A stretch of 37,478 nt of DNA from Bacteriovoracaceae bacterium (GTDB lineage: Bacteria > Bdellovibrionota > Bacteriovoracia > Bacteriovoracales > Bacteriovoracaceae). The stretch is taken from assembly GCA_947448205.1 (NCBI GenBank), contig CANFNL010000006.1, positions 1-37,478 on the forward strand, read 5' to 3'. A model generated the notes under the pieces. The model was not told the origin of the DNA, ran no database searches, and worked only from the letters and a program-made list of their open reading frames with translations. Shown here piece after piece: positions 26,840 through 28,346 of the stretch; position 1 is the first letter of the stretch; each line of letters opens with the position of its first letter. Both the position numbers and the translations under genes were made by a program.

Positions 26840-27232
26840 TTAAGATTTTTTATGGGCCTGCGACCAAGCAGGTCCATCTTCATTTCCCACTAAGTTCCAA
26901 TTATCCACAATTGAATCCAAGACTGCTTCATCATCTAAATATTCACCCAACTCTTCTAGTAATTCATCTTGATCTTCAACATTTGTTAAAAGCACATTAC
27001 TCCAATAATGAGTTCTTTCATCTTCAAGAACCTCTTTAAGGTTTGATAAAATAATCAGGTTGTAAGGAGCGAGAGTGCCTTTTTTTAAGGCAATCATCTT
27101 TTGATTGGGAAGTTTATGAAACTTGTCCCCAAAAAAATGAGTAATTTCAGTCACCACAATTTTTTCGAGTGTAATACGAAAACGTAGGTTTTTATATTCG
27201 GTTTCAAAATTCATGTTAAAATAATCTATCAT
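26840..27232 (-). CDS. acidic protein of unknown function, divergent from the histone-fold gene
   Basis: This encodes 130 aa (or 124 aa from a second ATG at 27214; neither start has a clear ribosome site). The first half is beta-rich (TEYKNLRFRITLEKIVVTEI), and the second is very acidic and helical (NVEDQDELLEELGEYLDDEAVL). No signal peptide, membrane helix or cysteine is present. Its 5' end is 30 bp from the start of the zinc-finger/histone gene, so they share a promoter region. An acidic protein next to a basic DNA-binding protein is suggestive of a partner, but unproven. Confidence 0.55.
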   Translation of the reverse strand: MIDYFNMNFETEYKNLRFRITLEKIVVTEITHFFGDKFHKLPNQKMIALKKGTLAPYNLIILSNLKEVLEDERTHYWSNVLLTNVEDQDELLEELGEYLDDEAVLDSIVDNWNLVGNEDGPAWSQAHKKS

Positions 27233-27262
27233 ATAAAATTAGAGTTCGTCTAAGGGGCAAAG

Positions 27263-27736
27263 ATGGAAGTGGAGCAAAATTATTGGCGTAAATGCAGCAC
27301 TTGTAAAAAAGAGATCGGTTTTAATACTATCTATCAAGTATGCAATGTTAGCACTTGTAAAAAATGGGTCTATTGTAGTGTGGATTGTTGGAATTTGCAT
27401 AATCCCGTTATGAATCATAAAAGTTCTTGGGCCGAAGAAATGAGATCTCCCCGAAAAGAAAATGCTCAGGCCATTGTTGAAGCAGGCCCTAGACGAATTC
27501 TCATTCAGGATAAGTCTCAAACTTCTCAGAGCTCCCTTGAGGGACAAGCCAATGAGGGGGAAATTCTCATTGTTGCCTCTAAGCTCAAGCAATACATTAA
27601 AGACAAATACGATATGAACACTTCAGCGAATGTGATGGAAATTCTCTCGCATAAAGTGAGAAGACTTACTGAGCGCGCAGTTGAAAAGGCCCGAAGCGAA
27701 GGTCGTAAAACTGTGATGGATCGAGACTATGAATGA
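27263..27736 (+). CDS. zinc-finger protein with C-terminal bacterial histone fold
   Basis: This encodes 157 aa, probably a DNA-associated cytosolic protein. Residues 11-52 carry a C6H2 set: C11, C14, C27, C32, C38, C42, H46 and H52. The YCSVDCWNLH phrase is typical of MYND/HIT/ZZ-like cross-brace fingers that bind two zinc ions. A 45-residue linker rich in Ser, Gln and Glu follows. Residues 100-157 read as a histone fold: EILIVASKLKQYIKDKYDMN (helix 1), TSANVMEILSHKVRRLTERA (helix 2) and SEGRKTVMDRD. R148, T150 and D155 match the R-T pair and R-D clamp of archaeal HMf histones (R52, T54, D59), and the wording is close to the Bdellovibrio histone Bd0055. The third helix is cut short by the stop. 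AGGGG precedes ATG. The frame overlaps the next gene by 8 bp. Confidence 0.82.
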   Translation: MEVEQNYWRKCSTCKKEIGFNTIYQVCNVSTCKKWVYCSVDCWNLHNPVMNHKSSWAEEMRSPRKENAQAIVEAGPRRILIQDKSQTSQSSLEGQANEGEILIVASKLKQYIKDKYDMNTSANVMEILSHKVRRLTERAVEKARSEGRKTVMDRDYE

Positions 27737-28346
27737 CCAGATTCAAAAATGCTTAGAGGTCGCAAATTGCTTTGAATTTATGCCAGGAAGTGACGGGAAG
27801 CACTCACAAGTTGAGCTCTCAAAGCTTTTTTTAAAACATCCTATCAAAGATTCCGTTACTTTTTTTGGTGGCAGCTTTAAACCTTTCCATCAAGGACATA
27901 GAGCTTGTCTAGATTTGTGTCCAGAAAAAAATATACTCATTATTCCCGATAGAAATCCCTTTAAAGAAATTAATGATGATGAAAAAATTTGGAATGAATT
28001 TATTCAATTGGCACAATCGCTTAAGGAAACAAACTACTCACTCTATCCAGGATTTTTAGTTCATAAGGTTGCCAACCCAACTTCTTCTTGGTTGCCATTA
28101 GTGAAAATTTCTCAGAAAAATTTTTTAATGGGAGATGACTCTTATCTGAATCTTTTGGCATGGAAAAATCCAGAAGTATTACTTAAATCTCTTACTAAAC
28201 TCTATGTAGTTCCCAGAGAATTTACCAAAAATGACTACTTAAAATATGAGCCAGAACTTTTGAAAATAAATCCCAAGTTAGAGATTCACTATTTGGATAA
28301 ACATCCTTATATGAATATATCTTCTAGTAAGCTCCGGATGAAATAA
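27729..28346 (+). CDS. NadD-like nucleotidyltransferase
   Basis: This encodes 205 aa of the HxGH nucleotidyltransferase fold. VTFFGGSFKPFHQGHRACL (43-61) contains the phosphate-binding HQGH (54-57); ILIIPDRNPFKE follows; the ISSSKLR at 197-203 is the second ATP-binding motif (ISSTxxR). This order fits nicotinate- or nicotinamide-nucleotide adenylyltransferases, which make NAD precursors from ATP and mononucleotide. An N-terminal extension of about 40 residues before the first strand is unusual. Its ATG lies inside the last codons of the histone-fold gene (8-bp overlap), with no independent site, so translation is coupled. It might be the cell's NadD or a related enzyme; substrate pocket residues were not checked. 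Confidence 0.75.
   Translation: MNDQIQKCLEVANCFEFMPGSDGKHSQVELSKLFLKHPIKDSVTFFGGSFKPFHQGHRACLDLCPEKNILIIPDRNPFKEINDDEKIWNEFIQLAQSLKETNYSLYPGFLVHKVANPTSSWLPLVKISQKNFLMGDDSYLNLLAWKNPEVLLKSLTKLYVVPREFTKNDYLKYEPELLKINPKLEIHYLDKHPYMNISSSKLRMK

What the first reader, a model, noticed from the sequence alone, without database searches (positions are those of the whole stretch)
27263..27736. Zinc-finger protein fused to a bacterial histone fold
The last 58 residues read like a histone: helix 1 and helix 2 phrases match archaeal histones and the Bdellovibrio histone Bd0055, and R148, T150 and D155 sit at the R-T pair and R-D clamp spacing of HMf. In front is a C6H2 double-zinc finger and a 45-residue flexible linker. 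A histone with its own zinc-finger tail would be a chromatin-type protein able to recruit partners or read a second ligand. Histones are already described in Bdellovibrio relatives, and I recall zinc-finger histone fusions from surveys of prokaryotic histones, so novelty lies in the function, not the fold.
Basis: partly seen in the sequence, partly recalled or inferred. Interest (0 to 1): 0.88.

Follow-up and report, generated by a model that had tools for sequence, protein, structure and literature searches.

The report
Bacterial zinc-finger histone of Bacteriovorax relatives
This gene makes a small bacterial histone with a zinc finger on its front end, a kind of protein already described but without a known job; in relatives the two halves can also be separate genes, and the zinc finger can be found where no histone is detected.

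Summary
Window 27263-27736 (+) encodes 157 residues: a C6H2 zinc finger (8-63), a variable linker (64-98) and a bacterial histone fold (99-157). The histone part matches Bdellovibrio HBb/Bd0055 (phmmer 5e-12; family profile 1e-22; Foldseek rank 1). Nine of ten HBb DNA-contact residues and the R-D clamp are kept.

It is a member of the published "ZZ histone" family (PMC11390915; B. bacteriovorus Bd3044). The passages I saw report no test of its function.

From the relatives:
1. The eight zinc ligands are near-invariant in 63 fused proteins; weak Pfam matches point to FLZ/MYND/FCS fingers, not ZZ.
2. The linker carries a conserved [P]RRI[IL]V-like motif (62 of 81 linkers; shuffle mean 8).
3. The finger also exists alone (28 genomes read, a lower bound); 15 of these keep a ZZ-type histone as a separate, non-neighbouring gene; six genomes of one genus have the finger but no detectable histone.
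4. Some fused genes of other families have an internal ATG with a Shine-Dalgarno-like site at the histone start.

Best reading: an HBb-like DNA-bending dimer carrying two tethered finger adaptors for an unknown partner. Known kind; mechanism open.

The parts
27263..27736 (+). ZZ-type histone gene, 157 aa
   Evidence: ORF; only copy found in its genome; homologues in the phylum
27252..27257 (+). weak Shine-Dalgarno-like AAGGGG before the ATG
   Evidence: read by eye from the sequence; not tested
27284..27451 (+). C6H2 zinc finger, residues 8-63 (ligands C11 C14 C27 C32 C38 C42 H46 H52)
   Evidence: 63-row alignment; profile A2 matches in 179 of 368 phylum genomes at E up to 0.01, five of them weak
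27452..27556 (+). variable linker, residues 64-98
   Evidence: low conservation apart from the motif
27488..27505 (+). conserved linker motif PRRILI, residues 76-81
   Evidence: pattern in 62 of 81 fused linkers against a shuffle mean of 8.2; PRRI[LM]V in 4 of 4 finger-less relatives of the same family that were read
27557..27733 (+). alpha3-type histone fold, residues 99-157
27704..27727 (+). RKTVMDRD, residues 148-155: R-D clamp, K-T pair and R154 DNA contact
   Evidence: mapped on HBb R51/K52/T53/R57/D58
27729..28346 (+). NadD-like nucleotidyltransferase gene, overlaps the histone stop by 8 bases
   Evidence: TIGR00482 6.5e-11, below its cut-off; best NadD match in the genome, the only other being short and weak; near the histone in 18 of 71 loci compared, all of the window's family
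26840..27232 (-). divergent gene of unknown function, a conserved upstream neighbour in 15 of 71 loci
   Evidence: no Pfam family over its cut-off

Best explanation
A ZZ histone. The C-terminal histone fold forms an HBb-like homodimer that grips and bends DNA through the minor groove without sequence preference (inferred from conserved contact and interface residues). Each dimer carries two zinc fingers on disordered linkers. The finger is most likely a protein-binding adaptor of the cross-brace treble-clef sort that brings an unknown partner to DNA; the conserved RRI[IL]V motif in the linker is a second, separate contact point (partner docking or DNA phosphate). It would act as a scarce, targeted architectural factor, not as the bulk chromatin protein. 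Shown: domain make-up, ligand and contact conservation, separability of the two halves. Inferred: dimer, DNA bending, adaptor role.
For: Histone homology and fold. Nine of ten HBb DNA contacts are identical in the window; across 63 relatives those nine positions keep the contact residue (K/R taken as equal at four of them) in 53-63 rows. HBb dimer-interface positions L31, I35, L38, V11 are L128, V132, L135, L108 here (HBb residues from passages of PMC11317129; I59 was not mapped). Ligands near-invariant. Finger and histone occur as one protein or as two non-neighbouring genes in one genome (15 genomes), which suggests joint action; the finger persists without a detectable histone in 6 of 6 genomes of genus g124 that were searched, which suggests a partner of its own. 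The linker motif is kept in four relatives without a finger. The genome has three HU/IHF genes or fragments, and the relative Bd3044 is described as scarce in B. bacteriovorus (passages of PMC11390915, and PMC10627809).
Against: No partner is known and gene neighbourhoods are not conserved beyond the window's family or, for standalone fingers, beyond one genus. The finger's fold was not predicted with confidence. HBb contact T8 is A105 here and T in 0 of 63 relatives, so DNA binding may differ from HBb. In this genus the ZZ histone is the only histone found, and one review states that Bd3044 is essential (PMC11318664, passages); both leave a bulk chromatin role open.
Confidence: 0.5

Rival explanations
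1. The zinc finger is an extra nucleic-acid grip: two fingers per dimer let one histone dimer hold a second DNA segment or a preferred site, so the protein bridges or marks loci.
For: Residues 1-66 are mildly basic (net +3); the standalone fingers with tails of 20 or more residues end in a hydrophobic-R-R/K motif in 16 of 16.
Against: Of the nine conserved non-ligand positions in the 49-row finger alignment only one is basic and one is acidic; cross-brace fingers of the MYND/ZZ sort are mostly protein-binding (recalled).
Confidence: 0.2
2. The finger reads histone tails, as eukaryotic ZZ domains do.
For: PMC11390915 (passages) models it as structurally like HERC2, p300 and ZZZ3 ZZ domains.
Against: No second histone better than E 0.05 in the 11 window-genus genomes tested that have the gene; finger without a detectable histone in 6 g124 genomes; the same paper finds the eukaryotic pocket residues not conserved and calls tail binding unlikely; ZZ is not among the 25 Pfam families listed for 49 fingers, a list cut at 25.
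Confidence: 0.06
3. In this genus it is the main histone and packages the nucleoid, with the finger as an accessory.
For: Sole histone detected in 11 of 12 window-genus genomes tested, while several other members of the family also carry histone doublets; a review calls Bd3044 essential.
Against: Three HU/IHF genes or fragments in the same genome; the relative Bd3044 is scarce; a long disordered linker and finger would be unusual for bulk packaging (inference).
Confidence: 0.15
4. A local zinc- or redox-responsive regulator of the NadD-like gene that it overlaps.
For: Eight-base overlap; the NadD-like gene lies directly after the histone in 16 of 71 loci compared and within four genes in 18, some loci being duplicate contigs.
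Against: All 18 are of the window's own family; elsewhere the histone has other neighbours.
Confidence: 0.06

Closest known systems
ZZ histones (Schwab et al. 2024, PMC11390915), e.g. Haliangium D0LYE7 and the ZZ histone of B. bacteriovorus (Bd3044)
   Same: N-terminal zinc finger with two predicted zinc sites, linker, C-terminal bacterial-dimer-like histone fold
   Different: Nothing that takes it out of the family. Standalone fingers, linker motif and internal starts were not in the passages that I read. The printed cysteine pair C51/C53 does not fit the C-x3-C spacing of the fingers aligned here; C51/C55 would. That the paper's B. bacteriovorus ZZ histone is Bd3044 is my inference from the two papers' texts
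Bacterial dimer histone HBb/Bd0055 (PDB 8cmp, 8fvx, 9ezz, 9f0e)
   Same: Histone domain, R-D clamp, nine of ten DNA contacts
   Different: HBb has no finger or linker; T8 is not T in any of 63 ZZ histones; HBb-type histones form a separate clade, support 98/96
Eukaryotic ZZ domain (PF00569)
   Same: Eight ligands in two sites (by the published model)
   Different: C-x3-C with an [FY]CS signature instead of the usual ZZ pattern (recalled); not in the listed Pfam hits
MYND / FLZ / FCS-type fingers (PF01753, PF04570, PF06467)
   Same: CxxCKKxI start and [FY]CSxxC knuckle (by eye); weak hits for 11, 20 and 7 of 49 members
   Different: MYND is below its cut-off for the window; scores of the other members were not shown; unrelated families also match weakly. 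Last two ligands H-x5-H, not H-x3-C as in MYND (recalled)

Membership tests
ZZ histone (alpha3 histones) | N-terminal finger with C4 and C2H2 zinc sites | tested here: met
   All eight ligands present, each conserved in 62 or 63 of 63; zinc itself not testable
ZZ histone (alpha3 histones) | C-terminal bacterial-dimer-like histone with truncated alpha3 | tested here: met
   Last helix 153-156 only; HBb best hit
ZZ histone (alpha3 histones) | RKTxxxD motif | tested here: met
   RKTVMDRD, residues 148-155; R148, T150 and D155 in 63 of 63
ZZ histone (alpha3 histones) | Finger folds like a ZZ domain | tested here: inconclusive
   AlphaFold pLDDT about 40-56 on 14 close sequences; weak sequence matches favour FLZ/MYND
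Bacterial dimer histone (HBb) | Single histone domain protein without extra domain | tested here: not met
   Finger and linker in front; HBb type is a separate clade in the tree
Bacterial dimer histone (HBb) | Homodimer that bends DNA | not testable with these tools
   Only monomer prediction offered; interface residues similar
Eukaryotic ZZ domain PF00569 | Match to the family profile | tested here: not met
   Not matched by the window finger at E up to 1 and not among the 25 families listed for 49 members (list cut at 25)
MYND finger PF01753 | Match above the curated cut-off | tested here: not met
   Window: 10.2 bits (whole protein) and 12.7 (finger) against 22.7

The most novel reading that the evidence does not exclude
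The 'ZZ histone' is one state of a two-module system in Bdellovibrionota: an autonomous cross-brace zinc-finger adaptor and a DNA-bending histone that have been joined and parted repeatedly, with the linker RRI[IL]V motif as an independent docking element, and with some fused genes making both the full-length protein and a free histone from an internal start. The finger would then define a bacterial chromatin adaptor that acts even in cells without histones.
Probability: 0.35. Interest if true: 0.62.

Novelty: new member of a known kind. Interest (0 to 1): 0.42.

Why it matters
Bacterial histones are a young field and I saw no test of what the ZZ class does. In the window's genus it is the only histone found, which would make a simple background for a knock-out or depletion. 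The split genes, and the genus that keeps the finger but shows no histone, are natural experiments suggesting that the finger has a job of its own, which makes its partner a findable target.

Tried and rejected
Structure of the finger: two AlphaFold2 jobs (full length; finger alone) on 14 close sequences gave block pLDDT of about 39-47 and 41-56 for it; I draw no fold from them. VIA-align was not available.

Finger against the PDB by profile: ten of eleven hits were cytochrome c3, taken as chance CxxCH matches, the other a mitochondrial ribosomal protein; rejected. The Adeno_E3_15_3 and Alb1 hits are below their cut-offs; rejected. NCBIfam gave no family over its cut-off for three standalone fingers and one fused protein.

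Gene neighbourhood as a clue to function: conserved only within the window's own family (NadD-like gene, divergent unknown gene) and, for standalone fingers, within genus g124; rejected as a general clue. Phages and plasmids (full-length protein) and viral contigs (finger profile): no relatives found.

'The window gene is the only histone because the assembly is incomplete': weakened, since 11 of 12 genus members tested have the ZZ histone and no other, but this genome is 89% complete and G012 (84%) shows not even the ZZ histone. Two of the 14 genus genomes (G008, G014) were not; each had one match.

Essentiality of Bd3044: a review (PMC11318664, passages) says that both histone genes are essential; the passages of PMC10627809 and PMC11317129 that I saw describe deletion attempts for Bd0055 only. 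I do not rely on it.

Trees rest on about 60 columns; many forks are unresolved and the bootstrap had not settled. The three g123 fingers are not in the finger tree. The motif and start-site tests do not correct for relatedness; six of the eleven internal ATGs are from one genus (g139), and the group of families tested was chosen. The standalone fingers were picked by short open frames in a capped list, so 28 is a lower bound and no census.

Full report
WHAT IS THERE. ORF 27263-27736 (+) encodes 157 residues. It is the only copy found in its genome (a 2.63 Mb assembly, 89% complete). Its 15 relatives in the named collection are metagenome-assembled genomes labelled Bacteriovorax, Bacteriovoracaceae or, once, Halobacteriovorax, with up to 82% identity over the best segment, so the window belongs to or near Bacteriovoracaceae, Bdellovibrionota.

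HISTONE DOMAIN. Residues 99-155 match HBb of Bdellovibrio bacteriovorus at 5e-12 with a single sequence; a profile of 40 relatives gives 1e-22 for HBb, 2e-10 for Leptospira HLp, 2e-4 for archaeal histone A and 0.0037 for HMfB. The AlphaFold2 monomer shows a long central helix (118-146) and a one-turn last helix (153-156), and Foldseek puts HBb first, with HMfB and NF-Y subunits further down at probability 0.92-0.99 (E-values are weak, 0.03 at best, because most of the query is unmodelled). From PMC11317129 (passages) the important DNA contacts of HBb are N22, R57, S9, T53, T8, S24, K10, K12, K52 and K16. In the window all but T8 (A105) are identical; over 63 relatives S106, T150, R148 and D155 are invariant, 107 and 109 are K or R in 63, 113 is K or R in 53, and T at 105 occurs in none.

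ZINC FINGER. The pattern is C-x2-C-x12-C-x4-C-x5(or 9)-C-x3-C-x3-H-x5-H. Seven ligands are identical in 63 of 63 distinct fused proteins and one in 62 (63 of the 80 distinct proteins of that call, the other 17 failing one or both of the script's simple patterns). Pfam matches are weak; the most frequent are FLZ (20 of 49), MYND (11) and C1_2 (10), with FCS in 7 and unrelated families in between; ZZ is not listed. The published name 'ZZ' rests on a structural comparison (PMC11390915, passages). My own models of the finger are too poor to decide.

MEMBERSHIP. The features of ZZ histones that could be tested are met, except that the ZZ fold of the finger stayed open, so this is a new member of a known kind. 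The full-text searches listed no experimental study of a ZZ histone that I could recognise from titles and abstracts; PMC11390915 and PMC12701072 name the class, and PMC10627809, PMC12701072 and PMC11318664 mention Bd3044 (passages only; the last calls it essential, which the passages of the primary papers that I saw do not show).

THE TWO HALVES COME APART. A finger profile matches in 179 of 368 phylum genomes at E up to 0.01: 174 at 1.1e-21 or better and five between 0.001 and 0.01 that I did not read; all but one have a single match. I read 81 distinct fused proteins and 25 finger-only proteins, and three more finger-only ones later: 28 genomes, a lower bound. Of these 28, 19 have a clear separate histone (5e-20 or better), three have a divergent one (about 3e-10 to 9e-10), and the six of genus g124 have none (a partial match at 0.065 in one, nothing at E up to 1 in five; completeness 83-98%). 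In the tree 15 of the 19 separate histones fall with the ZZ-type histones (fork support 89/82, not a strong fork); three of the other four sit in the HBb clade (98/96) and one beside it. In these 15 the two genes are not neighbours: they lie on different contigs in 13, and about 17 kb and 740 kb apart in two (coordinates), and a histone search of the fetched flanks of 25 standalone fingers found only a 12-residue match at E 0.20. On the finger tree of 106 rows the standalone state needs eight changes, at least four of them forced by strong branches. Conversely four finger-less histones of the window's family (L097, L098, L100, L102) fall among fused ones, with modest support.

LINKER MOTIF. 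A pattern of one or two basic residues followed by two hydrophobic ones occurs in 62 of 81 fused linkers; 500 shuffles give a mean of 8.2 and at most 17. The four finger-less relatives keep PRRI[LM]V. The standalone fingers with tails of 20 or more residues end in a hydrophobic-R-R/K motif in 16 of 16 (shuffle mean 0.18, most 2); nine of the 25 have short tails of at most seven residues and lack it. Related sequences are not independent, so these numbers show conservation, not repeated origin.

INTERNAL STARTS. In 13 fused genes of families f13, f22, f26 and f27, 11 have an ATG shortly before the histone; ten of the 11 have a Shine-Dalgarno match of four or more bases at proper spacing, five of them of five or more. 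In the other 68 fused genes one of 31 linker ATGs does (Fisher p 8e-8 and 0.003). The grouping was chosen, and six of the eleven are from one genus. The window's linker has no ATG.

CONTEXT. The downstream NadD-like gene overlaps by eight bases and is the best NadD match in the genome, below the family's cut-off. It lies within four genes of the histone in 18 of 71 loci compared, all in the window's family and some of them duplicate contigs. Of the 14 held genomes of the window's genus I tested 12: 11 have the ZZ histone and none a second histone better than E 0.05, whereas several other members of the family also carry proteins with two histone folds. The window genome has three HU/IHF matches, one at a contig edge.

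HOW IT MAY WORK. The histone fold should dimerise and bend DNA like HBb. The finger, being separable and kept where no histone is detected, is unlikely to serve only to read histones; a protein adaptor is the simplest reading, with nucleic-acid binding as the main rival. The linker motif looks like a second functional element because it survives the loss of the finger. None of these activities was tested.

Noticed in passing
L133-L138 (six genomes of one genus, g124): Standalone 72-97 residue zinc-finger frames in genomes with no detectable histone, followed in 6 of 6 loci by a membrane pyrophosphatase-like gene and ExbB/ExbD-like genes (names by eye).
   Followed up: partly
L088-L093, L108, L123, L142, L143, L145-L147, L150-L152: Sixteen standalone finger proteins of about 105-161 residues ending in a conserved hydrophobic-R-R/K tail.
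   Followed up: yes
L061, L064, L076, L103, L121 and relatives: Possible gene-within-gene: ATG with a Shine-Dalgarno-like site at the start of the histone domain inside fused ZZ histone genes.
   Followed up: partly
L044, L045, L210, L211, L215: Histone doublets: two histone folds in one 131-155 residue protein in other Bacteriovoracaceae.
   Followed up: partly
L077 and L196 (genome G350): One genome carries both a fused ZZ histone and a separate ZZ-type histone.
   Followed up: no
window 27729-28346: NadD-like gene overlaps the histone stop by 8 bases; best NadD candidate in the genome although it scores below the NadD cut-off.
   Followed up: partly
window 26840-27232 (-): Divergently transcribed conserved gene of unknown function only 30 bases from the histone start, kept also beside finger-less relatives.
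   Followed up: no
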